DNA from: Sclerotinia nivalis | Taxonomy: Eukaryota > Ascomycota > Leotiomycetes > Helotiales > Sclerotiniaceae | DNA: 64,000 bases | NCBI GenBank assembly: GCA_029531795.1 | Contig: JAPEIS010000010.1 | Coordinates: 1,116,001-1,180,000 of the forward strand | Reading direction: 5' to 3' | Part shown: positions 4,048-64,000 of the stretch, in pieces | Numbering within the stretch: the stretch's first letter is position 1 | Layout of the letters: every line of letters begins with the position of its first letter | Notes under the pieces: generated by a model | Database searches by the model: none | Told to the model about the DNA's origin: nothing | Seen by the model: the letters and a program-made list of their open reading frames with translations, nothing else | Program-made: the position numbers and the translations under genes

Positions 4048-7000
4048 ATGGTGCTTTCCAATCCAATCTCTGAACCCATCACGGTCTCTACGAAATAGAA
4101 CAGTATTGTTGTTTTCAACAGAGATAACTGAAGCGAATTCAAGGAATCCTATTTATTTGTATTTGGTGCAACTGAAGCTATCGATATTATCAACAATACC
4201 GAAAATCAATTAGATCCTTTCGATCCAGATTATTCCGATGCTTTACTTTATGATTACAAGAAAAGAAGAGGTTATACAATTGTTATATTCAATTCTGAAG
4301 TAAATGTAATTTATCGTTCAAGCTTTGTTGAGTATATTGATAATCTCGATGTTGTTTCTATATGGGAAACTTTCAAATTACACGATAATAATATTCACTT
4401 TTATTTTATTGTTGAAGTTCGTCGTCAATTTCTACTCGAAACCTTCGATCCCAAAACTCAAACTCTTCGAAATTTCGTTGAATGTCTTCTTTATTATCAA
4501 TGACAAATTTCCAATAGTATACGATTAATCAGCTATGAAGAGGTTTATACTCAATTTATAAATAAGATTCCCGAAACAGAAGATTGATAAACAGTAAAGA
4601 TGTTTATTCTTAATGTCGATCAGAATCTTCAACAAGTAATGATAACCTTCAATATTTATGAAAAACCAATTACTGCTACAACAATCTATACTGACAACAA
4701 TCATTCTAATATGAAGGGAAATAATCGAGATCGAGAAGGACGAGGTGCTTTTCGAAATGATAGAGGTAAAAACGATAGCCGAAAATATAATAGAAACAAT
4801 TGCAACAAACGAAATCGAAGCGATAATCGTAAAGATTATATATCAAATAAAGGAATTGCAAAGAATCAATATCGATTCTGTTATAAATATAATCATTATC
4901 AAAAGGATTGTTATGCTCTAGTAAAAGCCAAAGTATTTGCTAGAAAAAACAAGAAAGGGAAGGATGATAATAATGATAATAAAAAAGCTAAAATTCAAAT
5001 AGTTGAAAAAGATCAATATAATAATACCATCTATTCAGGGTTTACTATATATATGATTGATTCAAATACGGATTGAATACTTGATTCAAAAGCCATTTAA
5101 TATTTTACTAATCAAATCGATAATCTTGAATATGTTCAATATTGGTTGACTCTAAAGAATATAAAGATTGCAAATAATATCTATGTTAAAAGTATTGCAT
5201 TTGGGAAAGCCAAAATCAGCAATTTCGAATTCACAAATATCTGATTCGTACCAGAATTCAAAAATACACAACTAATATCTATCAAACTTTTTATATCGAC
5301 AAAATATAAAATCATCTTTGAAAAAGATTCAGCCTTTTGTTGGAAATTCGGACAACTTCAATTCACTGCAAAACTTACATCCGGATTATATATAATCAAA
5401 CAATCACCTCAAATAAATATAACGAATCTTACTTTTCAAAACAACAAAAAAGAAGATTTCGAAGAAACAAATGGAAAACTGGCACATCGATATCTAAAAC
5501 ATCTCAACTACAATCAAATGAATAGATTGAAAAAAAGATCTAAAGGATTGAAATTTACTAAGAGATCCAAAACGAAAGAAAAAAGAACTTGCGGACTATA
5601 CCTTTCAAAACGAATAAAAGAGTATTTCAACAAAGAGATAACTATTCGTATATTCAAAAAGCTTCAATATATACATTATAATCTTTTAGAAATTCTTTCT
5701 CCTTTAACAAATAGGAATAGATACTTTCTTCTCATTATAAATGATATTACAAAAGTTAATTGGATATATTATACAAAGAATAAAAAGACTACAACAATGA
5801 TTCTTATTCTAATAAATCTTATCAAGGAAATTGAAAACAAAACAAAAGAAAAAGTTGTAATTGTTCGTACAGATAATGAAAAAGGCGAATTTGGTATAGC
5901 ATTTCAAAACGAACTCAAGAAACTTGATATACAATTCGAACCTTCTCCTTTAGGAAAGCATTCTATAAAAAAAATCGTTGAAAAACAAATTCAAGATATC
6001 AATACTAAATCTAAAAGTTTACTCGATCAGATAAATATACCAAACAATCAATAAAAATTGACAACTCATTATACTATTTGGTTATACAACAAAGCTCCAA
6101 CGAAAACTCTACCATTCGGAAAATCAGGACCTTTATCCACAACAATAACTCCTTTCGAAACATACTACAATAGATTACCAGATTTCTCGAATCTACAAAT
6201 GTTTGATTGTAAAGCATTCGCTCTCAACCCTCAATATTCAAGAAAACTAACAAAAAAGTTTGAATCACGAATATTAAAAAAGGACTTTGTATTCATTAAA
6301 ATGAATAAATACTATATTTATCTTCTACTTAATCTTCTTTCCAAAAAGATAATAAAAACCGCAGATACTAATTTCAATGAATATAATTTTCCATTTAAAG
6401 AAACTTCAATTAAATCAAAATCTGATACAAACAAAGCAACCCTAAGGTCTAATACAAACAAAGCAATTTCAAAGTCTGATATAAATAAAACAACCTTAAG
6501 GTCTAATACAAACAAAACAACTTCAAAATCTGGTACAGATAAGAGAGCTCCAAAAACTAAAAAGAGAAATCCACTGTTTATAGCGGAAAAGCCTCAATAA
6601 AAGAAAAGAGGAAAACCTTCGATACAGAAGAAGATCCCACAAACAAATACTAATACAATTAAAAGTTTATTGAATGCTATCTACAAATACTGTTTGAGAA
6701 AGATTTTTAATGATTAAATTATACAACAAATAAAAGCATTGAAAGTTGTTGTTATTAATACTGAAAATTCTGTTCAAACCAGTGGTTCAGTAGTACCTTT
6801 TGAAGCAATAGAACTTGAAGAGGCTATACGAAAAAACAATAAATAATGATTAAAAGTTATCAGATCTGAATTGATTAGCTTTCGGGAGAACGGCATATTC
6901 GAGATTATACAAGAGGAAATGCCGGGAGGCAAGAAACTGATGACTTTCAAATGAGTTTTGTAGAACAAAATGAATCAATTCAATAAGATAGCTAAACGAA

Positions 7001-21232: not shown

Positions 21233-24036
21233 TTCTCTTATTCAGAGGTTTTCTGAAGTTATGTATATGTTGTCTTTTTGCTAAATGAATTAGAAGCCTT
21301 CTTGTAAAATGATATTTCCCTAGCTCTTAGTTTAGTATATTATTTTTATTTTCCTATTTAATGAAAAAGAAGAAATGGATTATATTAAATTAATACCGTT
21401 TTCGGTTTATGTCATTTTGTTATAAATATAAAAAGATTTTAAAACAATTTAATATTTAAAACCTTTTATGAATTGAATTGAAAATTAAGTTTAGATTTGG
21501 TTGAAGAAAATGGTCGAAAGTTTGAAAGGAAAACTATAAGATTGTTTACTGAAAGTGGTTTAATTAGAAATAAATTCATTGAGGTTTTTTAAATTCAAAA
21601 GAATTATTGTATTGATAATCCTTTTATCCTTAATCTTTTCCGAAAATAATAACGGTATCAATTTTCTCAAAAACAGATTGTTGAAGTTCAAATATAATCT
21701 TATCAGCTAATCGGTTAATTGAAGTTCTAACCTTGTATAGATTTGATCAGATTCTTCCGATTTTGTATATAATTTAGGTTTTGTTGAGATCGAAAGTGTA
21801 TTTTATATAATCTTTTTGTAATATATACTCTGATTTGAAAATGTTTTTATTGTTATTATAAATTATTTTCCTTTTCGGGTTATTAAGGGTTTTTTTTGTT
21901 TTGTAAGGTGAAAGGAAAAGTTATTTTGAAAATATTAATTTATAAATTCTAGTATTCAGAAATGCTTTTTTCGAATAAGATTTGTAAATAGTTTATTTTA
22001 GATTTAAAAGGTTTTAGATGATCGATATAAAAGAATCAATGAATAGATTTATTATTGACTTATTGTAATTGATAGAACTTCTGATGATTTCCTATAGGAT
22101 CAACTATTATAAATAGATTACAATAAACTAAATAAAGTTTCTTTTTAATAGATATTTCATTATAAAATATAATCATTTGATTAAGATTGAAAACTATATA
22201 GTTTCGAATTTTTATATTGTATTTTTCTTTAGTTAGTATCTTTTTTCAATTAGATTATTGTAAGATTTTCTGTTGAATTAGCTTTTTGTTATATATAAAA
22301 TCGAAGACTTTCGTTTGATGAATTTTTTCTGGAAAGTTCTTATTGAGATTTGTAATATTGAATAAAAAGTTTTGGATTTCAAAATGTTGATTTGAAAGGT
22401 ATTTGATTTTTAGATATTCTATAAATTGATATTCAAAAAGGATCTTATAAGAAGAATATTCTAGATAATCGATTTTTTATATATTGAGTAAATTGATTGA
22501 GATTTGAACTTCTATAAACCAATTTTCGATTCCTGAATTAATCTTCTTGAGAATTCTTTAAAAAAGATTTTTATTTTTCTTAGTTATATTAAAGGATTTC
22601 TTAGCTTCTATAATTATAGAGATAAATAGCATTCCGATTTCTTTAGCAAATTATTTAATTATCTTATTTTCGAAATGAATACCTGGATTATAAAATCCTC
22701 TAATCGGAATTCCAAAGGTATTGAAAATCCAATTTAAATATTTTACTATTTCAATATTTGTTATTCCAATTATTGGAAAAACTTAAATATAATATGAAAA
22801 GTAATCGATTACAAAAAAAATATAAGAAAAGTAAATAAAACCTTTTTTATCAAATATATTGTTATCGAAATCTATTGATTGAATAATAATATCGATTTTA
22901 ATAAGTTTTTGAATTACTGATTAGATCATTTTAAAAATCTCAATCTTATTGATTGAAATAGATAAAAAAGATTTTATAAAATCGAAATCAATAAGAATTA
23001 AAGAACGATCAATTTTATAAGATTTAAAATAAAATATCCTTTGTTGTATATTATATTTAGTATATTTTATACAATTTTAGATATATTATTTGATATTGAT
23101 AATTAATATTGATTATCAATAATTCCTAAACTTTTTGATTATAAATTTTGCCACGTAATGATTTTCTAAATCATAAACGAAAGTTAATATTTCTGAAACT
23201 TCAGATTTGAAAACGTATCATTTGTCAACTCTACGAAAAGAAAAATACAATTTGCCTTTAAGTATATAAAAATTCTTGATATATTTAAAAAAGGCTGCTT
23301 TTTTTAATTTGAAAAAATCTTCAGAAAAAATTTGAATTGTTATATAAGTATATATAAAAAAATACTATAGATCTTTATTATATTTATTTGCAATTGAATT
23401 ATATTGAATATTATTGAAGATAATTATAATATGATTAGTAATTATTGATTCTTTCAATAATAATATAGAGAATATATTTTGATTTTTGAAATCTAATTGT
23501 TTCTGTAGATATTAGACTTCTCGAAAACAAAGAAGTTTTTTGTAGCTTTCAATATCATCTTTTCAAATCCATTTGGGATTGTTTGTATTATATTATAATT
23601 CTTCTAAAAAATCTAAAAGGTCATTTGATTTGCAATCAGAATTCAGGAAAATAGTACAAGAAAGAGTATTCACGATTTTGTTATAAATTTTTGAGATATG
23701 AATAATAGTGATATTGAGAGTGGAAAGTTTTATTGTTTAATAAGTATATATACTTCTAATCTGAAAATTGAAAAAAAGAAAATTGGTAAATAGCAAATGA
23801 TCAATAAAGATTATATAATCTTCAATAAATCTGAAATAGTAATAGTATTTTCTAACGAATTCAATGATAGCAAATAATTTGTATTTATAGATATTATAGT
23901 TTCTTTATGTTTTGGTTAACAAAAAGGAATTATATAAAATAGAATATTCTATTAGATATTCAGTATTCTATCCTGAAGGGTAATGTTTCTGAGTAATAAA
24001 ACATTCTAATGCGAAAGCGTTTGAATTTGTATATAT

Positions 24037-25045
24037 GTTCCGGGGCATTGGCCAATTTCGTGATTCGTCAATCAACGTAGTGCATTGGCCAATAAACTAC
24101 ATTTTTGAATGAACTAGCTCATTGCCCAATATACCTAGTTCAGATAATAATGAGACTATTCGCAAATGAGCTAGTTCATTCGTAAATACTCTAAAACCTA
24201 TTACACTATAATATATCATTATTCTCTACATTCTTTCTATTCAATTGATATTCTACAATCGTTTCATACCTTTTACAAGATAATTTATTCATTTATTCAT
24301 TCAAAATATCAGAAAACATCACTTTCCAAAAGCAAAATGCTTCCATCAATCCTGATTTCGAATCCTTTTCTGAAAATATTCGAATAGAATTCAAGGATAT
24401 GATCAATGGTATAGATTATAAATCCAAAGAACGGTTAGAACCTTATATATAATATAAAATAAAGGTTTACCTTGAAGATTCTATCCTCAAAGTTTCAAAT
24501 CAAACAAAGCGAAATATTAAATTCGCTGCTAATCAAAAATATAAGCTTCAAAATGATCGACTATTCCGAAAAGCTTATAGACGATACCCTACTCGATATA
24601 CTATACCTAATAATGAGGCTTTTGATATTATTAAATCAATACATCTTCGATTGAGTCATTATGGCTGGGACAAGCTTTATTATGAAATTAGTTCAGAATA
24701 TTATAGTATCAATAATAAAGAATGCGATTGGATTGTATAACATTGTCGCTATTGTACTCTGAATATAAAGGGGTATTATTAGTATATATATTAGTTCATT
24801 TGCGAATGAACTAGTATATTGAATAATTTATTTTTGTATAAACGTAGTTCATTCGTGAATATACTAATCCATTCGTGAATATCCTAGCCCATTTGTGAAT
24901 AACCTTATTATTACCTGAACTAGATGCATTGAACAATGAGCTAGTTCATTCAAAAATACAGTTTATTGGCCAATATACTAGTTTATTGGCCAATAAACTA
25001 GCTCATTTGATTGACGAATCCTCATATTGGCCAATGCCCCGGAAC
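24037..25045. mobile_element. Terminal-inverted-repeat element carrying an H2C2 zinc-finger gene
   Basis: The ends are perfect inverted copies of GTTCCGGGGCATTGGCCAAT, and similarity continues for about 40 bp (through GGATTCGTCAATC on the right arm). ATATAT flanks both sides (24031-24036 and 25046-25051); the uninterrupted G1 copy has a single ATATATAC here, so the insert caused a duplication of 2-6 bp that cannot be resolved in this repeat. Inside each end lie repeated short motifs: TTGGCCAAT and variants of CTAGTTCATTCGYRAAT, about ten in all, like subterminal transposase-binding sites. The only gene-like content is the broken frame at 24306-24782. It could be a non-autonomous DNA transposon related to Ginger-type elements, which have gypsy-like integrases. 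Confidence 0.75.
24306..24782 (+). pseudogene. Small gene for an integrase-type H2C2 zinc-binding protein, RIP-broken
   Basis: One register of 158 codons runs from ATA 24306 (in the position of an ATG) to TAG 24780-24782. It has two internal stops, TAA at 24450 and TAA at 24738, both compatible with CAA-to-TAA. The C-terminal half holds the retroviral/transposon integrase zinc-binding domain: IHLRLSHYGWDKLYYEI gives H-x4-H-x-G, then YYSINNKECDWIV and HCRYC give C-x2-C after about 30 residues. The N-terminal half (NPDFESFSENIRIEF, KVYLEDSILKVSN) is charged and unrecognised. No DDE catalytic core follows; the frame ends 11 codons after the finger, so this is not a whole integrase. It sits centrally between the inverted repeats, as a transposon cargo or transposase gene would. 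Confidence 0.7.
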
Positions 25046-25599
25046 ATATATTTGAACTGAAAGAGTATAATCGATATTATAGGAATCAACTATTTTTGAA
25101 CATTTCTCTTATAAAAATTCGAAAGCTAATTGTTTATAAACTCCTTATTGCTATTCTATTTTATTTATAAGATAGGAAAGAAAATAAGAGATCTCAATAA
25201 AATTCTTAATATTTTTACAGATTATTTATATTGTAGTTAAAAAACTTTGAACTTCAATTTGATTAATAGAAACCGGAAAATTCTTGATTTTGGTTGTTCT
25301 AGCAGATTTGGTAATTATAATACTGTTAGTTTTATGAAGAACTTCTAAAGCTTCTATTTGATCAACAAAGATATACAATTTTTTGAAAAATAGATATAGT
25401 TGAGCGAAATCAAGACAAGGAAGAATATGATTAGTTAGGTTAAAATAAGCTTCTTCCGGAGTTACAGAATCTGAAAAGATATCGTTAATATAGAATTTTA
25501 CTAATACTAAATTATTTTCAATACTAGATTCGAATATAGAAGGATATTCTCTATTTGTTGAACTATCTTTAAAAGAAGGAATATAATCGAAAACTATAT

Positions 25600-30558: not shown

Positions 30559-33500
30559 ATGGTGTTTTCTAATCCAATCTTTGAATTCGTTATGGTTTCT
30601 ATGAAATGGGGTAATATCATTGTTTTCAATGGAGATAATTGGAGCGAATTCAAGGAATCCTGTTTATTTGTATTTGGTGTAATTGAAGCTATCGATATTA
30701 TCAATAATATCGAAAATCAATCAGATCTTTTTGATCTAAATTATTCTAATGCTTTATTTTATAATTATAAGAAAAGAAGAGGTTATATAATTGTTATATT
30801 CAATTTTGGAATAAATGCAATTTATTGTTCAAGTTTTGTTGAATATATTGATAATCTTGATGTTACTTTTATATGGGAAACTTTCAAATTATATAACAAT
30901 AGTATTCACCCTTATTTTGTTATTGAAATTCGTCGTCAATTTCTATTCGAAACCTTCGATCCTAAAACTCAAATTCTTCGAAACTTTATTGAATGTCTTT
31001 TTTATTATTAACGATAAATTTCCAATAGTATATAATCAATTAATTATAAAGAGATTTATATTCAGTTTATAAATAAGATTCCTGAAATAGAAGGTTGGCA
31101 AGTAATAAAGATGTTTGTTTTTAATACTAATCAGAATTTTCAATAAGCAATGATGATCTTTAGTGTTTGTGAAAAACCAATTATTGTTATAATAATTTAT
31201 ATTGATAATAATTATTCTAATACGAAGGGAAACAATCGAGGTTGAGGAGGACGAGGTGTTTTTCGAGGTGGTAGAGGTAAAGGCGGCAGTCAAGGATATG
31301 GTGAAAACGATCGCAGTAAACAAAGTCGAGGCAATGATTATAAAGATTATATATCAAATGGAGGAATTGTAAAGGATTAATATCGATTCTATTATAAATA
31401 TGGTTATTATTAAAAGGATTGTTATGTTCTAATAAAAGCCAAAGTATTTGTTAGAAAAGGTAAGAAAGGGAAGGATAATGATAATGATGATGAAGAAGTT
31501 GAGGCTCAAATAATTGAAGAAAATTAATACAATAGTATTATCTATTCAGAGTTTGTTATGTATATAATTGATTCAAATACGGATTGGATATTTGATTTAG
31601 GAGCTATTTAATATTTCATTGATCAAATCGACAATCTTGAATATGTTCAATATTGGTCGACCTCAAGGAATGTGAAGATTGCAAATAATATTTATATTAA
31701 AAGTATTGCGTTTGGAAAAGCCAGGATTGACAATTTCGAATTCATAGATGTTTGGTTTGTATTAGAATTCAGAAATACATAATTAATATTTGTCAAATTC
31801 CTTACGTCGACAAAATGTAAAGTTATTTTTGAAGGAGATTCAGTCTTTTGTTAGAAATTCGGATAACTTTAATTTATTGCAAAAGTTATATCCGGATCAT
31901 ATATAATCAAACAATCACTTCAAATAAATATAGTGAATCTTACTTTTCAAAACGACGAAAAAGGAAATCTCGAAGAAACAAATGCAGAATTGGTATATCG
32001 ATGTTTAGGGTATCTCAATTACGATCAAATGGATAGATTGAAGAAAAGATTTGAAAGATTGAAATTTACTAAGAGATTTAAAACGAAAGAAAGAAGAGTT
32101 TGCGGATTATTCCTTTCAGGACAAATAAGAGAGTATTTCAATAAAAAAACAGTTATTTGTATATTCAAGAAGCTTCGATGTATATATTGTAATCTTTCAG
32201 GAATTCTTTTTCCTTTGATAAATGAGAATAGATATTTTCTTTTTATTATAGATGATATTATAAGAATTGATTGGATACATTATATAAAGAATAAAAAGAT
32301 TATAATAATAATTTTTGTTCTAATAAATCTTATTAAGGAAATTGAAAACAAAACAGGAGAAAAAGTTATAATTGTTCGTGTAGATAATGGAAAAGGCGAA
32401 TTTGGTATAGCATTTCAAGACGAATTCAAGAAACTTGGTATACAATTCGAATTTTCTTTTTCAGGAAAGTATTCTATAAATAGAATCGCCGAGAAACAAA
32501 TTCAAGATGTCAATGTTAGATCTAGGAGTTTATTCGATCAGGTAGGTATACTAAACGATTAATGGGAATTGATGATTCGTTATATTGTTTGGTTATATAA
32601 TAGAGTTCCAATAAAAATTCTACTATTCGGGAAATCAGAATCTTTATCCACAATGATAACTCCTTTCGAAGTATACTATAGCAGATTATCGGATTTCTCG
32701 AATCTATGAGTGTTTGATTGTAAAGCATTCGCTTTTAATTCTTAACATTCGGGAAAACTAATAAAGAAGTTTGAATTATGAATATTAAAAGGGGACTTTG
32801 TATTTATTGAAATGGATGGACATTATATTTATTTTCTATTTAGTCTCTTTTTCAAGAAGATAATAAAAATTGTAGATACTGATTTCAATGAATATAGTTT
32901 TCTATTTAAAGAAACTTCAATTGAATCAAAGTCTGATATAAACAAAGCAATCTTAAGGTTTGATATAGACAAAGCAATTTCAAAGTTTGGTATAGACAAA
33001 GTAACCTTAAGGTTTGGTATAGATAGAGCAACTTCAAAATCTGGTATAGATAAAAGAGCTCCAAAAGTTAAAAAGAGAGATTTATTATTTGTAACAAAAG
33101 GATTTCAACAAAAGAAAAGAGGAAGATCTTTGATATAAAAAAATATTTTACAAACAGATATTAATATAATTAGAATTTATTAAATATTGTTTGCAAATAT
33201 CATTTAAGAAAGATTTTTAATGATCAAATTATATAATAAATAAAAACCTTGAAAGTTGTTGTTATTGATACTGAAAATTCTATTCAAACTGATGGTCCAA
33301 TAGTACTTCTTGAAACAATAGAATTTAAGGAGGCTATATAAAAAGATAATAAGTAATGATTAAAAGCTATTAGATCTGAATTGATTAATCTTTGAGAGAA
33401 TAGTATATTCAAGATTATACAAGGGGAAATGTTGGGAAACAAGAAACTAATGATTTTCAAATGGGTTCTACAGAACAAAATGAATCAATTTAATAAGATA

Positions 33501-51454: not shown

Positions 51455-52389
51455 AAACTCTCAAAAGTCTAAACTATTCTATATTTCGAATTATTTCAAT
51501 TTGATACACAATCTTTCAATAATATATTATATTAAAAGAAATAGTAGTATGTGGTTTAGACTTTAGTGATTCGTGTAACGTTTTAGGAAAAAAAGTTGCT
51601 ATACCCCGATTGCCAACAGTTGTTAAACGAGGTATCGAAAGTTAAAAAGTTGCTATTCGGGGTATTTACCGTAATATTTATTACAAGTGTTGAACCACAA
51701 TCGTTTACTAAACTGCTGAAGATTCGAGGTTCATCGTCATCTTGCTAGATTCTTCTGTCCTCCAACAGCTTTAACAGTGAAATGTGGATTCAACTTGAGA
51801 TAAAGCAACCACACCACTATATTTCCTCGTCCTCCTACCCATGTGAATCTAAACAACGACAAAAACAACTTCCAAGCTAGTATTTGAGACTTTGGGGAGG
51901 TAGCGATGCGATCACATCAACTTTTACCCCGAAGCATCAGAACTCGCGCGCGTGAGAAGTTAGGGTAATAGTTCCAGCTGTCATTTTGCAGTTTTCGATT
52001 TATATGACAGACCCTTTCCAAGGACCTTCCGCACTCGAAAACAAGCTCGACACTACTCGAGGTTCTCGATCCAAATTAAGAGACTCCAGTACGTGCAGGA
52101 AACTTCTCTCTTTGTTTGAAATCAACCAGCGAAACCAGTGAATGAATCGAAAGAAACAAACAAAGTGTTACTCCATGGCATTATATAGAGATTCCATTCA
52201 CATCTTGCCTGAGACATATTATGGAAAGCGAATCAACGCTTGAACGGATGTCGTCTGAAGATACTTCAAAATGGAGCATGGACACGTGTCTAGCGTCGAA
52301 TTAGGCACTCGCACTCAAGTAAACCCGGCCACTGGCCGAAGTTTGTTATGAATCACCTGGGCACATCATCGTCGTCGGGTATATTCGCC
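51455..52389. other. Border between the AT-rich repeat half and the gene half
   Basis: AT-rich sequence continues to about 51600, then composition becomes ordinary within about 100 bases. At 51590-51660 an imperfect repeat AAAAGTTGCTAT occurs twice beside TACCCCG and CGGGGTA, which form a loose inverted pair. I see no gene on either strand; the right part is presumably upstream sequence of gene 1. Confidence 0.5.
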
Positions 52390-52405
52390 TATAAAATTAT
52401 ATAAA
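52390..52405 (+). promoter_or_regulatory. Possible TATA region of gene 1
   Basis: TATAAAATTATATAAA lies about 180-200 bases before the start codon, in otherwise mixed-composition sequence. A transcription start near 52430 would give a leader of about 150 bases. This is position and sequence only. Confidence 0.35.
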
Positions 52406-52586
52406 CAGAGCTATCTCCTCAGTTACCACAGGATGTTCCAACTTCTTAAAAACAACCAAAACAATTCAAACAATTCTTCGATTTTCGCGCGCGCAAATTT
52501 GTCCCCCATACACATCACTCAACAGATAAAACAAACAAATAAACAAACAACGAAACAAAACGAAATCTACTGCCCTTATTACCAAG

Positions 52587-53375
52587 ATGGAAATGGACTT
52601 GGAAATATCGCCACATGCCGGGAGATCAGAGGTTCAAAGTCAAGTTCCTACTTCGCCCCACTTTCAAAATCCCATGCAATACCTTCATGGCGCATGCAGC
52701 CACTGCTATCGCGATGATGGTAGGGATATTAGAGACAAACAATTGGTTTCGTGTTACCAAGATGGCGAACTGGATCCATTCACCCTTTTCTTGCTAACTC
52801 CTAGATGGTGTGTAGATTGTTTGGCTCAGAGAGAAATGGCGATTAGGGCTTCTTATTGTGATCGTTTGATAGAGATGGAGTCGGTGGAGTTTCCGGTTGG
52901 TACGGTGCAGGAGGCCTATATTCGTGGTGTAAGTTTATGGCTGTATACTCCAGAATCCGGTGTCCAGGTGATTCTGGGTATAAGTGGTGAATTCTTTGAT
53001 GAAGTTATTAACATCTTTTAGGTTCACGATGGACGGATCAATGCCCTATCTCAATCATTCGAAGATTGTGGAGTACGGTCAGGGGAAGATAGCAGTTCTA
53101 TTGTCGATGATATCGACGAAGTTTTAAAGAAATTGACAAACATGGGACTCGGAACTGCTAAATCGAACGAAGATAACAAGATCGACGAAATCGTCCGAGA
53201 TTTCAACGATCAGATGATTTTAGAAGACGACGAACTGAAGTACGAAGTTTATTGGCACTTGGCATACATGGAAGGAACGAAAGATGGTTCCTACATGCAA
53301 GCACAGATTGAGTACAAAGCACTTACGATGGACGATCCGGAACGAAGTGAAATGCTGAGGAGGGCTGTGCTGTGA
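52587..53375 (+). CDS. Gene 1: hypothetical protein with paired CxxC motifs, 231 aa, two exons
   Basis: Exon 1 is 52587-52928 (114 codons) and exon 2 is 53022-53375 (117 codons plus TGA). The 93-bp intron 52929-53021 starts GTAAGT, ends TTTTAG and has ATTAAC as a likely branch site; both splice sites are phase 0. Without splicing, exon 1 would run to a stop at the intron end. The start ATG has the context CCAAGATGG. The protein has C37-x2-C40 (ACSHC) and C75-x2-C78 (WCVDC), a plausible zinc site, then an acidic exon-2 part rich in D/E and S (SGEDSSSIVDDIDEVLKKL) and a helical C-terminus (YEVYWHLAYMEG). I see no signal peptide or membrane helix. I do not recognise the family; small acidic nuclear or cytosolic proteins like this are common as hypotheticals in ascomycetes. 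It is the first gene to the right of the repeat border. Confidence 0.75.
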
Positions 53376-56300
53376 GGAAATAGACCAAGTGGTTATGGAA
53401 AATCAAAGAGTCGGCAGTTGTCTTGCGGGGTATATTGTATTTTGAGTTGGGTCTGATCTCGGAGTTAAATTGGAGCTGAGCATTTTGTATCTGGGGAAAA
53501 TGTCCTGTGCACTGACTGATATTGTCGATTTGGGTCGATAGATAAAGTCATGGACGATGTCCGTGACATGAATGAATCGACAAGACTATTGAGGACAATG
53601 AAGTTAATTTATTATGCGATGTTGCGCAAGCTGAGTCGAACCATTTCAAGATTATTCCTGAAATTGGAACGTTGTCGGTTCTTTTGGAACACAACGAAAC
53701 TGTCAATATCAACCCAAGGAAGTAACAGTTGAATGGAAATACAGACCTTTGTCATCGTGATCGGCGAGTGGAGGAATGTCTGCCTTGCAAGTGAGAGTGA
53801 GATTTGTGTAACTCGACATTTCTTCAACGATCCTGGAAGTGTCACTCAGGTAGAGAAGTAGGGGTGTGCATATGTAATCGGTGGGAGACTGTGCCCCGAG
53901 ATTGCTGACTCCTATTGCAGACACGGGATGAGACCGAGATGAGAAGGGTAAACGCAATGTATGTGATTTGATATTTGCAGATACGAATATATCAACGATT
54001 GCGTGGTGAGCTTTATTATCAATTTACCATTTTGGGCAGTATGGAATTCACGCTGGAATTGTGATGTTGCTTGGGTTCCATGAGTGTGATGTGAATTTTG
54101 GTAGGTTAATGAACTTTTCTAGAAGATGGCCACAGTGCCCCGACCCATTTGGCGCTATGCTACTTGTCGGAGCTATAAGCATATGGCGTAAAGATATATA
54201 TAAATGGAAACATGTACTCTGTATGTTAGGGTAGTATCTCTTTAGCCTAGGCTTGAATCCTTGTGGTTTATAATAGTTTTCCCTTTTTACGCCCTCCAAT
54301 ATATTTTTTTAAACCCTTCTAAACCAGCTTTCTTTTCCTAAAGCTCGTCGTCAAAAGGGTGGCTAATTGGATGGATGCGTGGTGCTGGAACACTGCTGCT
54401 AAGAAATTTTATCCCTGTTAGATTTCATGGCCCCATACACGTTATCAAACTTTTGCTCTTACGGCTGCTGACTTGCATAATTCCAAAAAGCAACTTGAGG
54501 AAAATTCCCGTGTGGAAGGTAAAATGTTAAACGGGTCCGATCGATCTTGGAAGAAAAGGAAGTCGGTACACTATATTTTCAGTTGGAGTTTGTTTCATCA
54601 TTGCCGGTGATTTTCAACTGATCATTTTACCAAGACATTTTAATATTTTTGGATCAAGAGTATTGAAAATATTGAAACCTGGAAATGTGCATGATGAATT
54701 GTGATAAAGCGTTAAAGCGTTACGAGCGCGGAGTCAATCAAAGATGCTGCACTGATAAGGAAAGGTGGAGAGGTTGCTGCATGGAATATGCAGGTGCAAA
54801 AGGTCTTTTTTTCTCTTCTTTCTTTCTTCATCTAAGCTACTGTAACATCATGGAGGGTTCTTCGTACAACCTCATTGAGCTGATCTCTCTTGAAACAGCA
54901 CATTGCAGCCTCTGAAAAGCCCCATGATACCACCTGTAATATAGACATGTTTTAACCAATTATATTAAGATCGCCATATTTGATAGTTTTCAACATGGCG
55001 ACAATGATCAATCAGTATCAGTATCAGTACCAGTACAAGGAATGACCCGAGTAGAATCTACATCATCGTCATCAAATTCAGGGCTGTTGAAGTCTCGGGG
55101 AGATTTATTGAAGATCGTTTCCATGATGGCATAATTACCAAGGACGAACTAAAGTTCAAGCAAGGTGGAGAAGAAGCAAGCCACGAAGCTTCAAAGACAC
55201 TCGCGAAGTATCCCAAATCCAGCTATATCATGTATGTCATAAGTTATAGCTTGAAGCCTTGCTCCTAACAAGGAAGGTAGGTATGTATGTGAAAAGGAGT
55301 TAGGTGCATTTCCTTCTTCAGTATCGACTGAGACAGTAGTGGCCGAATTCAGTGTATGCGTGTGAAGGAAGAACCACGGAGTAGTCCATATCACGTAAGT
55401 ACTCCGCACCTTTTTCCCCGACGATCTTTTAAGGTCTATGGATTGCCGGATATTAAGTGAGAGATAGATACTGAAGTCTCCGATATCAAAATGAGAATAT
55501 GCTTTGCTAGAGAAATAAGCCTTGCACCCGCGACTACCTAAAACTTATAAATACGCAGATCACAGACATTGTTGACAACACTGAATCGTATTTTCGTAGC
55601 ACAGAGCAGCTTTTATTTCTAGCTTAACTCGGGATATCTTCGTCTAGAACTATCGCACCCTTGGCACAAGCCTCAACGGGTGTCTGTTATTTTGTGGTTT
55701 TGCCATCCGACCCTTGGCTTGTCGACTAGATGTTTTCGCATCTTAATTTTTCATGTAACCAAGTCCTCGACGGGTTATCTCGAGGATCAAATCTGATCAA
55801 TCAAGCAATCTTACTTAGTTACGGTACTCCTACAAAAAGACGTTGCCCGCCATGAAGATTATTACGTTGTATTGCAGCAGATAATGCTCAGCCTTCCCCA
55901 GGAATCTCTTTTAATCAATTGTCAGCTTCAGCTATGACAACTTGGGCCTTCAACACACATAATCGTGCATAGCCGTAGTCATAAATAGACAATCTCTACC
56001 CTCCATTACTCATCTATGTACTCAAGTCTCATGTAAGCATTTCGGACGTCGGATCATCATTCTACAGAGTATAGTATAGTATTAGACTCGTATACTGGAG
56101 TAGCAACTTGCAAAAAGCTGGCCAAATATTTTGTATCAAATCTTATCAACTCCACCAAGTTCCAAGTCGCTTCTCATCACCAATTTGATCAAGAAGATTC
56201 AAGACAAGACAGCCGCCAATAACCCGATACTTCGGTAATTGACCTTTTCATCCCATCCTCCACCTCCATACGGGCCCTTTTATTCTCCACCTTACACTGT

Positions 56301-57303
56301 ACCCGCGCCTCAATTGAAAAGCATATACCCCCTGAATGTTTGACATTCGCACACTTTACCCAAAGAAACCCCCAAAAATTCTATCGCTTCAGGGTCTTTG
56401 TTAGTACAGGACTGCTTACTTGTCACAGGGGTAATTCACGGATCCTAGGCTTTCTAGTTCCTCGTTCCTCCCGCTGGTTCCTCCGCTGAGAAAAAGCACG
56501 CATCTTATCTGACGCCTTAATGCAACTCAACCTACTTGGAATCTTTTCCTAAGAGTTCCCAAATCATCCATCATTCTCTTCGGGATGAAGGTCTCCTCTT
56601 TCAACAAACGCATCACAAGCAATTTTACTTTTACCTTTCTATAATTAATATATAAAAAATCGGTAACCTTTAAAAAGAGTTTTGGGTCCAGATATCCTAT
56701 TGGTTATTTCGTTCTCGGAACATTGGATCTCTTTGGATCTTGGTAACCCAGGTACGCTCAAAAAATTGTTCCATTTCATCACCACCAATCTTCCATTTTG
56801 TGGGTATTCAATTTGGGAAGCTGTGTCTAGATATGCTTGACTTTTCCTTAAAAGTTTATACCTCTTCTTTTTGAATACTCTCCAACCATCACAGTCTCCA
56901 GCTTTCAATTTGTATATGATTCAAGGTGTATCACCATATGAATTGCCTTACCTCGAGTCAGTCCTTGTGCATTGACTGCCTACTCGAGCCCTCTTCCTGA
57001 TAAACTTATTATACAGTCTTACAAATTCACATATCTATATCATATGTTTTTGTCTTGTTGATATATAATTGCCTATACTGATTTGCATTGAAAGCTGTTA
57101 ATACAGGGGATTACTCAGATTCGAAAACTTTGTCTCAATGTCCCATTTGACCTGATCAATTCGTCCACAACAAGTCGTCCGACACCACCCTAATTGACGA
57201 CTTTACTATTCGCTACTACTTTTTGCTGGTCATAAATAAGACAGTTTGGAGGATCAATTTGGGAGGATCAACGATAACCACCGAGCCTAGTCCAATATTA
57301 ATT
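53376..57303. other. Long intergenic region between genes 1 and 2
   Basis: Of ordinary base composition, with no frame that I can join into a convincing gene. Short frames on both strands (for example 54048-54299 minus, 54685-54915 plus, 56645-56908 minus) lack motifs and splice partners. The last 1 kb or so (from about 56200) is pyrimidine-rich and is likely promoter and leader of gene 2. A short non-coding RNA or strain-specific small gene could be missed. Confidence 0.5.
57138..57155 (+). promoter_or_regulatory. Possible five-codon upstream ORF of gene 2
   Basis: ATG-TCC-CAT-TTG-ACC-TGA lies about 150 bases before the gene 2 start. If it is inside the transcript it could lower translation of gene 2. 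The transcript start is unknown. Confidence 0.3.
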
Positions 57304-60300
57304 ATGCATACTTCACAATCGGCGCAACAATCTGCACGGATGGAGAACTCTAGTCGGCGAGTTGGTAGATCACACAGCGTTTCGAGCGATAGACCTTCGA
57401 CGGCTAGCACTTCCACTAGTTTACTCTCTCCGCCTCTCTCAATCTCACCAGAACCAGTTTACATTGCCTCTTCAGCAGCTTCACAAATCGTTACAAACGA
57501 CCACGACAGCAGAGCGGATGCTTGGCTTGATCAACATGGAATTGAGCCCTCGGGAGAAACGGCATTGGTATCGCCCGCTGCTCTCAAACTTGTCAATACA
57601 TTTCTTGACCAACTGGTATTAAATTTCCTCTCGGCATCGAAATCAACTTCACTGGTATCATTACGCCCAGCTGTTACTGAGGTTCTGAAGCCAAGGCTTG
57701 CAAGAGACGCCGTTAGAGGAGCCGACAATGAGCTTCGAGAATATTTGGGTGGAAGCGAAGATGATGAATTATTGTCATCCGAGAGGGAAGGCCAATCAAG
57801 CCGAGATTGGGACCTCGAATTGGTGTGGAAGCGCACGAGATTGAGATGCATGGTTTATTCATCATTAGGGGATATGGAAGAAGAAGACGAGGATCGATAC
57901 ACAGCCCAAGAGCATCTCAATGGTTCCTTGGAATCTGGGGATCGCGAAAATGAATCCGGAATCGTTTCTCCAGCTGTTGCTATCTTCTTAACGTCCATCT
58001 TGGAGTTTATGGGTGAACAAATACTTATTATAGCAGGACAGGCGGCCTATACCCGACTTCGCATGAAATATGAGAAGGAGGAGCGCGATGGCACAACTAG
58101 ACAAACTGACATCGCAGAACGTGTAGTCGTAGAGGAGACTGATATGGAGCGAGTCGCATCGGACCGAATATTGGGAAAACTCTGGAGAGGCTGGAAAAAG
58201 CGCGTCCGTTCGCCGACAAGTTCAGAGTCAATGAGTCGCTCGCATTCCTCGAGAGAAATTACGGGCAATTCAGCACGGCCTGTCCTGGAGCTAGCCCAAG
58301 CGGCCAGCATCTCTTCAAGTGATGACGAGCAACTGCAAGAAATATCATTCGACGCATTGGCTGAGCACGAACAAGTTGCCATTATTCCTTTGCCAATGAC
58401 TGTGGACGATGTTAGAGAAATTGAAATACCAGGACTAGCTCCACAAAGTGATAATGAAGAAGAAGATGATGCTTCAGAGACAGAAGAGCTGCCATTTTCT
58501 CGGCGACCGAAGAGTATGGTGATTTTCACAAATGCATCGCACAATCTTCCCACACCTAATTCTTCCCAACCGCCAACCCCAATTTTCGCCGCTAGTCCTT
58601 CAAAATCGAGGAAACGTGCAAACTCGCTACCACCTCCAATCCCATCTACAGTCATGTCACTTTTCTCCCGAGGTTCCAAGGAAACAATCTCGCGCCAGGA
58701 AGATTCGGTGAGCCCATCCCAAGGTGGAGCCGCGGTCTTAAATGGCACGATCACGCCCGCAGAATCGGAGAAAGATGCAGAGGAAGAAAATGAAGAAGTT
58801 TCAAGTAAAGGAAAGGGTGCTGTACCGGAATTGAAGCATGAGCCCGCGGATGACACCATGGAGTTGGATGACATGAGTAAGGATATAGATTCCGATTTCG
58901 AATTTGTTGAAGAACCGCAAATCATGACTTCCTCACGTATCTCTTTCGGTGGTCGAGTTTCTCCTGATGATAGAGATTCCTCTTCACGTTCTAGTCTACA
59001 CTCTAGTGTTCAATCACCAAGTATTCATTCCTTGCGTCTCATTGATGTTAACACAGCGAAGAGTCCTACAACAAAGTCACGCCAGGACTCCTTTGATGCG
59101 ACAGATTTCATTCCTGGGCGAGGTGTCTCGATATCTCGCCCTACTAGTATACATTCACCTATTATAACAGAACTTTCTTCTCGAGGAACAAGCCCGAATT
59201 TTAGAAGCTCGAATAGTTCTCCATTAGCTCGAACTGGCTCCAACTTAAGCTCAATTCCTGTCAAGACAACCACCGACTCGATATCCGAGGTGGATGAAAG
59301 GGGGTTAGCTGGAGATGAGTCTCCATTGACAGCCGTACCATCAGAGCTTGCAGCTGCAATGCAAGGTGTTGATGTAGATCCTAGTCCTACGTCTCAGAAC
59401 TATCCTTCTTTCAAACCCGCGGCTTTTAGATCGACACCATTTGTGCTCGCTGCCCCTCCAACCCCACAGAATTACCGAGAAAACATGAAAGGATCGGCCA
59501 GACAACACGCTAATAAGGGCCAGCCACTGAGTGGCTTCTCAAACTCGAATGTTCGAGGAATTGAGCAAGATGGTCAAATGACACATCAGGGTGCAAAGAA
59601 CTCATTTGAGCCACCTTCAAGGTCGGTCTCTCGTACAATGGCCAATTCTGTGAATGAGAATCCAACGATCCTGCCAATTGTAAAAGAGAGCAGCTCTCCA
59701 GAGATGTTCAAGAGTGTCCCTCGTTCATCTTCAGTGCGTCGTACTTCATCTCCGCGCTCTATAGGCGAGGAAGTATCACGCAGGGCCATACTTGAAACAC
59801 AGCACAAAGTTCATCAGGCATCTTACACATCCAGCGTCATCTCATCTTCTACCCCTCGTGACAAAAAACGACGAGTATCTGAAGAAAGTGGTGTTTCGGC
59901 GATGAGCAGTGTTGGGGATTCTAAGTCATTTGAAGAATTGATTCGAGGAGGCGAGACCATTCAATACACATTAACACCGCAAAATATGCGTGCTATTGAA
60001 AGTCCAGATTCCCCATTGAGTTTGACAGCCATCCCTGTTCCTCGGTCTGCTTCCGGACGTACACACTCATCATCAGTGAGCAAGCACACTGGATTGCACT
60101 CTCATCCTCCTAGTGATGTTCCAAAGAATCTCGGTTCTTTGAAAAGTCCTAATGCCGCACAACCAAGAGATGCAAGAACTGGTCGAGATTCACTGGGAGA
60201 TATCTCTGATTTTATTCGATCCACGGGTCCTGCAATTCCTTTGAAGAAGGAAGAAATTCACTCACGATCAAATTCAAGTGCCGCGGGTGATATTGCTCGA

Positions 60301-61386
60301 CCACTAACAATCGGTAATCTCCACAAAGGAACCAATGGAACGCCGAGAAACGTCAGTGGCTCAATACCTCGTGTGGGTCCCGTTGCCGCTCTTCCCGCAC
60401 GAGCGGCATCATCCGCTGGTCGATCGGGCAGACCAAATAAATTACAGGCTCGTGATGCCACCGTAGGCAAAGACTCTATCACCGATCTTATCGACTTTGT
60501 GAGGGCCGGTCCTGATGAAGTTGGAGGTCATCGTATACCACGAACTGTTGCCCCATTTAGAACTACAATGGATTCCGATCAAATGTCTGGTTTTGCCGGT
60601 GGTAAGGCTATAGATGCATCTCTACCCGATGCTAGATACAGCCAAGCATCTACCCACGCATCCACAAATCATTCATCGGTTACTTCGCAGACAGGACTCC
60701 TGAACAGCTCTAATAGGGCGAACAAGCCCATGCCCACGCAGAGTGGTATGAGTTTCGACGACGATGAAGATATGATGCCGAAACGAAAGACACGAAGAGT
60801 GAGGGATCCATATGCCATTGACTTCAGTGATGAAGAAGATGATGAATTCGAACATTCTTCCAGACCGGCACCCATACAAGAAGAGTCCTTGGCCGACTTT
60901 CTCCGAAACGTACCTCCACCACCTTCACCGAAGATGACTTCTGTTTTTGCCGAAGTTCAGAAGCCGCCTAAGAAAAAGCCCAGCTTTTCTTCGCGTTTCA
61001 CTAGAAGTGGCTCTACTTCTCAGGTTCAGCAACACAAAACATCACATTCTATGACATCTCGCACGACACCCACCAAACATACACCTTTTGCTTCAATTAA
61101 TCCCCAATTTAATGCTCCTGCTGGTGGCAGTAGTCATGGAAATTACTCCCAGCAACCCGAACTTCCAAGAGCAACATCAAGCTCCAATGTCGTTAGGAAG
61201 CCTTATGAATCTCGCGAACCTGTTCCAGTGAAGTTCAGATCCCAAACGAGCGATCTCGCAGACTTTTTACGAAACTCGGAACCCCCTCCATCGGTAGAAC
61301 CTAAACCTTTCATTCATGCAAAGGAGGAGAGTACATTCGCAAGCCGATTCTTTGGGAGACGTAAGAAGAGCACCGCTGGATTTTAA
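57304..61386 (+). CDS. Gene 2: large mostly disordered protein with tandem histone-fold-like N-terminus, 1360 aa
   Basis: A single exon from ATG 57304 to TAA 61384-61386; the frame is open from 57223 but this is its first ATG, and a second in-frame ATG follows at codon 13. Residues 1-70 are Ser-rich. Residues 89-150 (SPAALKLVNTFLDQLVLNFL ... DNELREYLGG) and 220-300 (VSPAVAIFLTSILEFMGEQI, LIIAGQAA, later VVVEETDMERVASDRILGKL) each look like the C-terminal two-thirds of an H2A-type histone fold; a conserved-looking DWDLELVWKRTRLRCMVYS (169-187) and an acidic loop lie between them. Residues 305-1340 are low complexity, Ser/Pro-rich, with acidic clusters and a basic stretch KRKTRRVRDPYAIDFSDEED near 1160, a possible nuclear signal. 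Four short repeats near 961, 1056, 1194 and 1316 share L-x-D-F-[ILV]-R. The C-terminus is basic (FFGRRKKSTAGF). I recall similar N-termini in ascomycete hypotheticals but no function. Nuclear location is an inference. Confidence 0.9.
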   Translation: MHTSQSAQQSARMENSSRRVGRSHSVSSDRPSTASTSTSLLSPPLSISPEPVYIASSAASQIVTNDHDSRADAWLDQHGIEPSGETALVSPAALKLVNTFLDQLVLNFLSASKSTSLVSLRPAVTEVLKPRLARDAVRGADNELREYLGGSEDDELLSSEREGQSSRDWDLELVWKRTRLRCMVYSSLGDMEEEDEDRYTAQEHLNGSLESGDRENESGIVSPAVAIFLTSILEFMGEQILIIAGQAAYTRLRMKYEKEERDGTTRQTDIAERVVVEETDMERVASDRILGKLWRGWKKRVRSPTSSESMSRSHSSREITGNSARPVLELAQAASISSSDDEQLQEISFDALAEHEQVAIIPLPMTVDDVREIEIPGLAPQSDNEEEDDASETEELPFSRRPKSMVIFTNASHNLPTPNSSQPPTPIFAASPSKSRKRANSLPPPIPSTVMSLFSRGSKETISRQEDSVSPSQGGAAVLNGTITPAESEKDAEEENEEVSSKGKGAVPELKHEPADDTMELDDMSKDIDSDFEFVEEPQIMTSSRISFGGRVSPDDRDSSSRSSLHSSVQSPSIHSLRLIDVNTAKSPTTKSRQDSFDATDFIPGRGVSISRPTSIHSPIITELSSRGTSPNFRSSNSSPLARTGSNLSSIPVKTTTDSISEVDERGLAGDESPLTAVPSELAAAMQGVDVDPSPTSQNYPSFKPAAFRSTPFVLAAPPTPQNYRENMKGSARQHANKGQPLSGFSNSNVRGIEQDGQMTHQGAKNSFEPPSRSVSRTMANSVNENPTILPIVKESSSPEMFKSVPRSSSVRRTSSPRSIGEEVSRRAILETQHKVHQASYTSSVISSSTPRDKKRRVSEESGVSAMSSVGDSKSFEELIRGGETIQYTLTPQNMRAIESPDSPLSLTAIPVPRSASGRTHSSSVSKHTGLHSHPPSDVPKNLGSLKSPNAAQPRDARTGRDSLGDISDFIRSTGPAIPLKKEEIHSRSNSSAAGDIARPLTIGNLHKGTNGTPRNVSGSIPRVGPVAALPARAASSAGRSGRPNKLQARDATVGKDSITDLIDFVRAGPDEVGGHRIPRTVAPFRTTMDSDQMSGFAGGKAIDASLPDARYSQASTHASTNHSSVTSQTGLLNSSNRANKPMPTQSGMSFDDDEDMMPKRKTRRVRDPYAIDFSDEEDDEFEHSSRPAPIQEESLADFLRNVPPPPSPKMTSVFAEVQKPPKKKPSFSSRFTRSGSTSQVQQHKTSHSMTSRTTPTKHTPFASINPQFNAPAGGSSHGNYSQQPELPRATSSSNVVRKPYESREPVPVKFRSQTSDLADFLRNSEPPPSVEPKPFIHAKEESTFASRFFGRRKKSTAGF

Positions 61387-62189
61387 TACTTCTTTGAATA
61401 TTTATTCTACGACATAACCTTTATCATCACCATTTAACAAAACCACTTTTACGATATTGTTTTTCGCTGGAGATTGACATATAATTGCTTTGAGCAATGA
61501 AATTCTTATAATTCTTATTGGGTTCTCTTTTGGGGACTATTTACATATTGAAATGAACTTTATTCATCTGCCAAGACATTTTTAGGAGGTTGGGGGTTGC
61601 GCTTGCATGATTTTACTTTTAGATACCACGCTGAGCATGAACATATGGCTCGAATTCTCGATTGAGAGGGAACAGAGGAGAGGAGGCTTTTTACATTTGA
61701 TCGACCCTTTGAATATACACATTTAGCGAAAGAGATTTTATTACTTTCATAAGGATGTAATCCGTTTCATAGGGATTGGATATTTTCAGGGTGGTTTGGA
61801 GATTGTTTCTGAAAATTAGATACATGGACATGGGAATGATGGATGGGTGGATGTTTGACGGGAATTTGAAAATATAGTTGGGGAGATGGTTGGTTATGAA
61901 TGTTAGCTTAGCTTAGCGTTGGTGTAGTTTGTGGATAGATACATACATACCGAATGAAATGATGGAATTTGTTAGATTTAAATGATTGGTATGGTTTTAT
62001 TACTGTGAGTGATGTAGCAAATATGTAGGATTAACCAAGAGGAAGAACCTAGATTTGCAAAATTCAGGACTATGTATGTATGATGAGAGTAATATCCTTC
62101 ATCATAAATCAAATAATATCCAACACAACAAAACACAACACAACATCCACCAAACCCATCACCCCATCACTTACTCCCCACCCCATCCC
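61387..62189. other. Intergenic region between convergent genes 2 and 3
   Basis: It contains the 3' ends of gene 2 (plus) and gene 3 (minus). Short direct repeats such as TTAGCTTAGCTTAGC (61901-61916) and a CA/CCCCAC-rich stretch (62120-62230) are present. No gene is seen. Confidence 0.5.
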
Positions 62190-63460: not shown

Positions 63461-64000
63461 ATTTAATTTGATAGAGCTAATGATATCGATTCATTTGTAG
63501 CGTAGTATGGTGAGTTTATGAGAGAGGGGAGATATTGATATTGATATTGATGTCGATTTTGGTCGTGGAGTTGGATAGGTATGGCGGGATGGTGGGAATT
63601 GGGTTGAGGAGATTGGGTGATGGGAGGAGTAAGGGAGGTAGGAATTTGAAATTTGGTATTTGGATCATATCAAATCGGACACCATTTGAAGTTGATGTGA
63701 TGGGGTCATAATGCACGGGCCACATGAGAAAATTAAAATTACTTGGGACACTTAAGGTTCATCGGGAGCTCACCGGGAGTATAAAAGCTCATTGGGAACA
63801 AGAACCTACTTGAAATTTTCTGCATTCGAGCGTGTAAAATATCTTATCTGATGACAAAAGTATGCATGAATACGATTAGTATGAATCACAAGATTTGATA
63901 AAGTCTAGATTTGAGTATTAAATATGAAATCTATCCTTTACATTCCCCTATCCCTCAATCTCCTATACTTCCCCGCATCCTTCACACTCGCCTTGATCTT
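63461..64000. other. Upstream region of gene 3 to window end
   Basis: The stretch 63530-63555 has GATATT/GATATTGAT repeats. TATAAAAG at 63780-63787 (plus strand) follows two CTCACCGGGAG/CATCGGGAG-like repeats and could be a promoter of a gene beyond the window. No coding frame is convincing. Confidence 0.35.

What the first reader, a model, noticed from the sequence alone, without database searches (positions are those of the whole stretch)
24037..25045. A 1-kb inverted-repeat transposon whose only gene is an integrase-type H2C2 zinc finger
The element has 20-bp perfect ends (about 40 bp with mismatches), subterminal repeat motifs, a flanking duplication and a central 158-codon frame. That frame contains a clear HHCC integrase zinc-binding domain but no DDE core. 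In retroelements this domain always precedes the catalytic core. Stand-alone versions inside a DNA-transposon-like unit could be a trimmed Ginger-like element or a cargo protein that binds the repeated end motifs. I know of no described element with this make-up.
Basis: partly seen in the sequence, partly recalled or inferred. Interest (0 to 1): 0.75.

Follow-up and report, generated by a model that had tools for sequence, protein, structure and literature searches.

The report
Internally deleted, non-autonomous Ginger-like transposon
The 1-kb element is a shortened, non-self-moving copy of a longer DNA transposon whose complete relatives in the same genome encode a full integrase-like transposase, so the lone zinc finger is a broken leftover and not a new kind of gene.

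Summary
The inverted-repeat element is real: window 24036-25046, 1011 bp, TGT...ACA, flanked by a 4-bp duplication (TATA). Its reading as a transposon with a stand-alone zinc-finger gene fails. The same genome holds five longer copies with the same ends (2,887 or 2,907 bp, one 3,197 bp with an insert). Their gene, 742 codons with one predicted 134-bp intron in the four copies read, carries the H2C2 finger, a D-x34-E integrase core and a cysteine-rich CXC-like tail. The window copy lacks about 1,900 bp of this, joined at a 3-bp ATA microhomology. Six copies found share this deletion, each flanked by a 4-bp duplication, so the short form moved repeatedly, presumably by transposase made by full copies. 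All six carry a stop just before the finger's C-x2-C, so none encodes a complete finger. The window's '158-codon frame' does not exist: two internal stops, longest stop-free stretch 95 codons. The gene piece shows no sign of selection. A sister family has other deletion forms, one of which keeps the gene's other end. It works like a Ginger element, but not all Ginger1 or Ginger2 hallmarks are met. Mildly notable: dense ATTNNNNAAT palindrome arrays in both ends, xATx targets and the CXC-like tail.

The parts
24036..25046 (+). Whole non-autonomous element (1011 bp), TGTTCCGGGG...CCCCGGAACA
   Evidence: four other whole copies of the same deletion form and one split copy found in the genome
24032..24035 (.). 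Left target-site duplication TATA
25047..25050 (.). Right target-site duplication TATA
24036..24174 (+). Left terminal inverted repeat (139 bp aligned)
24884..25046 (-). Right terminal inverted repeat (163 bp aligned)
24036..24215 (.). Left array of 7 palindromic ATTNNNNAAT units, many about 20 bp apart; proposed transposase binding sites (inferred)
24757..25046 (.). Right array of 11 palindromic ATTNNNNAAT units; proposed transposase binding sites (inferred)
24306..24765 (+). Remnant of the first ~153 codons of the transposase gene (ATA at the parental start; in-frame TAA at 24450-24452 and 24738-24740, the latter between the two H and C-x2-C of the finger)
24763..24765 (+). Deletion junction, 3-bp ATA microhomology; about 1,900 bp of the parent (between positions 730 and 2628 of the 2887-bp copy) is missing here

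Best explanation
The element is a non-autonomous, internally deleted copy of a Ginger-like cut-and-paste DNA transposon, probably of a fungus. An ancestral 2.9-kb element lost about 1.9 kb between two ATA trinucleotides, probably during faulty gap repair (inferred). The loss removed the DDE core and everything up to the last codon or two of the gene, but left both ends with their palindrome arrays. Transposase made in trans by full-length elements recognised those ends, cut the short form out and inserted it at new AT-centred sites with 4-bp duplications. The zinc-finger piece is a passive leftover that most likely already had a stop codon before it spread (6 of 6 copies carry it). Shown: the shared deletion, the shared stop, duplications at the separate sites, and longer copies with an H2C2-DDE gene. 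Inferred: mobilisation in trans, cut-and-paste movement, and the arrays as binding sites. None of the five longer copies of this family has an unbroken gene, so the family is probably no longer moving in this genome.
For: Own-genome searches found five whole 1.0-kb copies plus one split copy of the same deletion form, and five longer copies with the same ends (the tool calls its counts lower bounds). Nine of these ten whole copies have identical 4-bp flanks, and the outer flanks of the split copy are both GATG. The junction sits on a 3-bp microhomology and is the same in the five aligned copies; the split copy reads the same across it. Four of the five longer copies were read: each gives a 742-codon frame once one predicted 134-bp GT-AG intron is taken out, with a CTAAT branch site in 3 of 4 and TTAAT in 1. 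Among relatives of that frame, rve matches 14 of 14 and Integrase_H2C2 13 of 14 at E <= 0.01 (14 of 64 hits scanned); a profile of the 14 finds PFV integrase among solved structures at 1.2e-20. The stop at codon 145 is in 6 of 6 derivatives and 1 of 5 longer copies. Among five derivatives, variable sites by codon position are 34/22/18, that is 0.45/0.41/0.39 of the columns that hold a C or G, so no deficit at positions 1 and 2. A sister family has derivatives of 955 bp (two copies), 652, 712 and 205 bp with different deletions.
Against: Frequent transitions (154 of 158 variable columns in the left part, 44 of 54 in the right) could have made the codon-145 stop several times, since it is a TGG codon that one of five longer copies also lost; that would weaken 'broken before it spread', not 'broken in every copy found'. 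The codon-position test is weak evidence: the four longer copies, whose gene surely once worked, show no clear deficit either (0.25/0.51/0.30), so it speaks only of recent decay. By overall identity the derivatives do not group cleanly (C1:3539k is 96.8% identical to the long C6 copy and 92.0% to the window copy), which I put down to different loads of transitions. The longer copy with the insert (C8:636k) has no duplication. Trans-mobilisation was not observed, and the intron has no transcript evidence.
Confidence: 0.95

Rival explanations
1. The short form encodes a working truncated protein (first ~144 residues of the transposase) that binds the end arrays and represses or assists transposition, like the truncated repressors known from some other DNA transposons (recalled).
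For: Two of five aligned derivatives (C10:46k and C1:3539k) are free of stops up to codon 144, and C1:3539k still has its ATG. The ends keep dense palindromes that a protein could bind.
Against: 6 of 6 copies have a stop before the C-x2-C half of the finger; 3 of 5 lack the ATG; 3 of 5 have earlier stops; one (C13:598k) has a 7-bp frame-shifting difference. No codon-position deficit, though that test is weak.
Confidence: 0.02
2. A gypsy LTR retroelement integrase fragment captured once inside an unrelated inverted-repeat element.
For: The gene is of gypsy/retroviral integrase type; one distant hit of 64, a bee protein, also carries a reverse-transcriptase domain (P0057).
Against: The whole 742-codon gene lies between the same ends in the longer copies, at the same coordinates in the four read; a sister family 70-74% identical over long stretches has the same layout.
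Confidence: 0.01
3. A true stand-alone zinc-finger cargo gene in a new type of transposon.
For: Several 1-kb copies exist and share the same coding piece.
Against: Stops, start codon lost in 3 of 5, and an exact internal-deletion relation to the longer elements.
Confidence: 0.01

Closest known systems
Ginger2/TDD DNA transposons (Bao et al. 2010, PMC2836005; parts 1-3 of 5 read)
   Same: 2.7-2.9 kb size in several families, TIRs of about 50-180 bp (260 and 297 bp in TDD-4 and TDD-5), TG...CA ends, 4-bp TSD, H2C2 plus DDE transposase, a short non-autonomous derivative (Ginger2-1N1_NV, 252 bp).
   Different: Ends are TGTTC, not TGTNR (fifth base C). Targets are xATx and not strictly RTATAY. A CXC-like tail is present, which the parts read do not mention.
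Ginger1 DNA transposons (same paper)
   Same: One transposase of about 500-800 aa with H2C2 and DDE, introns in many families, TIRs 40-270 bp, 4-bp TSD.
   Different: TSD is not CCGG/CCGT; no OTU or Ulp1 domain in the 14 relatives scanned; GPY/F and YPYY motifs not assigned here.
Unnamed fungal transposase relatives (Pseudogymnoascus, Metarhizium incl. one named 'SCAN domain-containing protein 3', Scytalidium, Cudoniella)
   Same: 43-61% identity over part of the query for the hits with these names; same H2C2-DDE order in the aligned ones. 11 of 14 aligned relatives (most without an organism name) have the same C-terminal cysteine pattern.
   Different: Proteins only; the ends of their elements were not examined.
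MITE-like / internal-deletion derivatives of DNA transposons in general (recalled)
   Same: Both ends kept, interior lost at a short microhomology, several copies with separate TSDs.
   Different: Longer (1 kb), with a still recognisable gene piece, and only 6 copies found.

Membership tests
Internally deleted non-autonomous DNA transposon | Same ends as a longer coding element in the same genome | tested here: met
   the 21-bp ends are identical in window and in five longer copies
Internally deleted non-autonomous DNA transposon | Interior collinear with the parent except for a deletion | tested here: met
   matches 1-730 and 2628-2887 of the 2887-bp copy, 3-bp overlap; besides this the window copy differs in the number of 20-bp end units
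Internally deleted non-autonomous DNA transposon | Moved after the deletion (several copies, separate TSDs) | tested here: met
   5 of 5 whole copies have a 4-bp TSD (TATA, AATA, CATA, AATT, AATC on the locus strands); the split copy has GATG on both outer flanks
Internally deleted non-autonomous DNA transposon | Mobilised in trans by the parent's transposase | not testable with these tools
   needs an excision assay
Ginger superfamily (parent element) | Transposase with H2C2 finger and gypsy-type DDE core | tested here: met
   D-x34-E spacing in 4 of 4 copies read, one of which has K at the E position
Ginger superfamily (parent element) | TIR-flanked, no reverse transcriptase | tested here: met
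   one 742-codon frame in 2.9 kb; no RT family among the Pfam matches of four gene pieces or of 14 relatives. One distant hit of 64 (P0057) does carry one
Ginger superfamily (parent element) | 4-bp TSD | tested here: met
   14 of 17 elements of both families with two ends; 3 of 17 without
Ginger superfamily (parent element) | Termini TGTNR | tested here: not met
   termini are TGTTC
Ginger1 | CCGG or CCGT target site | tested here: not met
   none of the 14 TSDs is CCGG or CCGT; xATx at 35 of 40 ends (one end counted twice through overlapping loci)
Ginger1 | C-terminal OTU or Ulp1 protease domain | tested here: not met
   neither matched in 14 relatives at E <= 0.01; a cysteine-rich CXC-like tail instead
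Ginger1 | GPY/F and YPYY motifs | tested here: inconclusive
   strands after the core in a low-confidence model; no motif alignment to Ginger1 was made
Ginger2/TDD | AT-rich RTATAY target | tested here: inconclusive
   a central AT is common, but the full RTATAY is not kept by the observed sites
Ginger2/TDD | Phylogenetic grouping with Ginger2 transposases | not tested
   no Ginger2 reference sequences were at hand and no tree was built

The most novel reading that the evidence does not exclude
The parent elements belong to a fungal branch of Ginger-like transposons that is neither Ginger1 nor Ginger2: TGTTC ends, AT-centred 4-bp targets, about 17-18 palindromic ATTNNNNAAT units in the two subterminal regions, and a CXC-like cysteine cluster at the transposase C-terminus that (with or without the N-terminal finger) reads those arrays as a multimer.
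Probability: 0.3. Interest if true: 0.4.

Novelty: new member of a known kind. Interest (0 to 1): 0.2.

Why it matters
As given, the finding is explained: it is a decayed deletion derivative. What remains useful is the parent family. It is a compact integrase-type DNA transposon, probably fungal, with unusually regular palindrome arrays in its ends and a cysteine-rich tail, which could help to ask how integrase-like enzymes without a retroelement life cycle recognise and excise DNA ends. It also warns against reading coding pieces of MITE-like elements as stand-alone genes.

Tried and rejected
Stand-alone zinc-finger gene: rejected because of in-frame stops, an ATG lost in 3 of 5 copies and the deletion relation to longer copies. 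Gypsy capture: rejected because the whole gene sits between the same ends in the longer copies. Classic CpA-directed repeat-induced point mutation: transitions dominate (154 of 158 variable columns left, 44 of 54 right) but without a CpA preference (left part: CpA 0.59, CpC 0.62, CpT 0.55, CpG 0.42), and TpA/ApT is 0.77-0.89 in the copies, so I call it only transition-type decay. A first all-in-one alignment misplaced the deletion gap, so its identity table for full against deleted copies is not used; replace it. In the right-hand alignment the last ~60 bp of the window copy are visibly shifted by a repeat unit, which inflates the non-transition count there.

Structure prediction of relative P0001 gave mean pLDDT 59 and pTM 0.31, so the Foldseek matches to Ty3 and PFV integrase (TM-scores 0.13-0.16 on the query among the listed top matches I rely on) are weak support only.

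Papers: PMC2836005, parts 1-3 of 5 of the text read; PMC10045372, PMC11457142 and PMC5753468, passages only; PMC12863088 searched for five terms with no occurrence; all others seen only as search listings. The searches listed no paper that, by title and start of abstract, describes this family; that is weak evidence, since listings were capped and subscription journals are mostly missing. PMC11457142 (passage) reports 'DNA/Ginger-2' among abundant elements of a Metarhizium brunneum strain. The names MITE and CXC, and the truncated-repressor comparison, are partly recalled; the only tool support for 'CXC' is one sub-cut-off Pfam match (preSET_CXC, E 0.0013, 1 of 14) and the cysteine pattern.

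Full report
What is there. The element runs from 24036 to 25046 (1011 bp), one base beyond the given limits on each side; it starts TGTTCCGGGG and ends CCCCGGAACA, between two copies of TATA. The inverted repeat can be aligned with gaps over 139 bp on the left and 163 bp on the right. The ends are packed with an imperfect palindrome, core ATTNNNNAAT: 7 units in the left 180 bp and 11 in the right 290 bp, against means of 0.2 and 0.4 in shuffles; the longer copies have 7 and 10-11, with 3-4 in their much longer middle. The pattern was chosen after seeing the repeats.

What the frame is. The frame that contains the finger is not open. It has TAA at 24450-24452 and 24738-24740, and ATA (24306) where 3 of 4 aligned longer copies have ATG. 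The second stop lies between the two histidines and the C-x2-C, so the window copy cannot make an HHCC finger. The longest stop-to-stop stretch in the element on either strand is 95 codons.

Relatives in the same genome. Searches with the element and with a longer copy found five whole copies of the same 1.0-kb form (window, C8:433k, C13:598k, C10:46k, C1:3539k) and one copy split by later insertions (C8:194-219k). They also found five longer copies with the same ends: two of 2,887 bp, two of 2,907 bp and one of 3,197 bp with an insert; a further long copy at C4 is incomplete. Nine of the ten whole copies have a perfect 4-bp duplication; the one with the insert does not. The outer flanks of the split copy are GATG and GATG. 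The search tool warns that its counts are lower bounds.

The parent gene. In the four long copies read, of five, the gene is a 742-codon frame after removal of one predicted 134-bp intron (GT...AG; branch site CTAAT in three, TTAAT in one), interrupted by 3, 3, 8 and 11 stops; one of the four has ATA instead of the start ATG and K in place of the catalytic E. The fifth, with the insert, also has stops. The order is finger, integrase core with D-x34-E, then a C-terminal cysteine cluster, complete in two of the four. The homology search returned 64 proteins, among them some named from Pseudogymnoascus, Metarhizium, Scytalidium and Cudoniella; one distant hit is a bee protein with a reverse-transcriptase domain. 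Of 14 chosen and scanned, 14 match the rve core and 13 the H2C2 family; 1 of 14 weakly matches a CXC family (E 0.0013, below the cut-off), while 11 of 14 have the cysteine pattern C-x-C-x3-C-x4-C-x-C-x6-C-x3-C. A profile of the 14 finds PFV integrase among solved structures at 1.2e-20. A structure model was poor, and its best fold match, Ty3 integrase at E 6.4e-09 with a TM-score of 0.16 on the query, is only supportive.

How the short form arose and spread. Its two halves match positions 1-730 and 2628-2887 of the 2887-bp copy, overlapping by ATA. The deletion takes out codons from about 154 to the last or last but one, with the intron. The five aligned copies share this junction, the split copy reads the same across it, and they sit in different places with a duplication each. 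One deletion followed by several moves explains them. The stop just before C-x2-C is in 6 of 6 short copies and 1 of 5 long ones, so it most likely predates the spread; parallel transitions are a possible alternative. Variation among the five aligned short copies falls on codon positions 1/2/3 as 34/22/18, or 0.45/0.41/0.39 of the columns holding a C or G: no deficit where selection on a protein would make one. The control is not clean: the four long copies give 0.25/0.51/0.30, so the test shows recent decay in both and cannot speak of the time before.

Independent parallel. A sister family (TGTTCCGGGCCATTG ends, 70-74% identical over long stretches) has two long copies with both ends (2,929 and 2,933 bp) and its own short forms: 955 bp in two copies, and 652, 712 and 205 bp in one each; three of these five short elements have a 4-bp duplication. 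The 955-bp form keeps the cysteine-rich 3' end of the gene and only a few dozen of the first codons. Which coding piece survives is thus a matter of where the deletion fell.

Target sites. Of 17 elements with both ends, 14 have a 4-bp duplication, and 13 of those 14 read xATx; counted by ends, 35 of 40 (one end counted twice through overlapping loci; the two ends of one element are not independent), where AT makes up about 0.13 of dinucleotides.

Comparison with known families. The Ginger paper (PMC2836005, parts 1-3 of 5 read) gives Ginger1 CCGG or CCGT targets, OTU or Ulp1 tails, and GPY/F and YPYY motifs, and Ginger2 AT-rich RTATAY targets without those motifs; both begin TGTNR. This family shares the H2C2-DDE gene, TIRs, 4-bp duplication and TG...CA ends, but begins TGTTC and has a CXC-like tail. 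It works like a Ginger element; I do not file it as Ginger1, and its place in or beside Ginger2 was not tested by a tree. The host is probably an ascomycete fungus, judged only from the relatives' names and the intron style (inference).

Verdict. The observation of a TIR element is right, the gene reading is wrong, and the element is an ordinary deletion derivative. Interest is low for the element and modest for its parent family.

Noticed in passing
window 1-52000 versus 52000-64000: Sharp composition change: about 22-28% G+C up to about 52 kb, then 42-45%; the element lies in a large AT-rich stretch.
   Followed up: partly
L009-L012, L014-L017 and window 24036-25046: Copies differ almost only by C/T and G/A changes (154 of 158 variable columns in the left part) without CpA preference, so decay resembles repeat-induced point mutation but not its classic context.
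   Followed up: partly
window 4600-6600 and 31933-32562: Frames that look like pieces of copia-type polyprotein; the one at 6058-6600 matches the retroviral polymerase SH3-like domain (E 2.3e-10); 5518-6054 and 31933-32562 look alike by eye but matched no Pfam family at E <= 0.01.
   Followed up: partly
L018 (C8:193800-201400) and L019 (C8:219000-220200): A sixth 1-kb derivative is split across about 25 kb, presumably by later insertions, with GATG flanks at both outer ends.
   Followed up: partly
L009-L012, right subterminal region: Long copies differ by a whole 20-bp palindrome unit (2887 versus 2907 bp), and the short copies carry an extra unit at another place, as if units are gained or lost.
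   Followed up: no
window 57223-61386: A 1387-codon open frame in the G+C-normal part with no Pfam match at E <= 0.01, probably a host gene.
   Followed up: no
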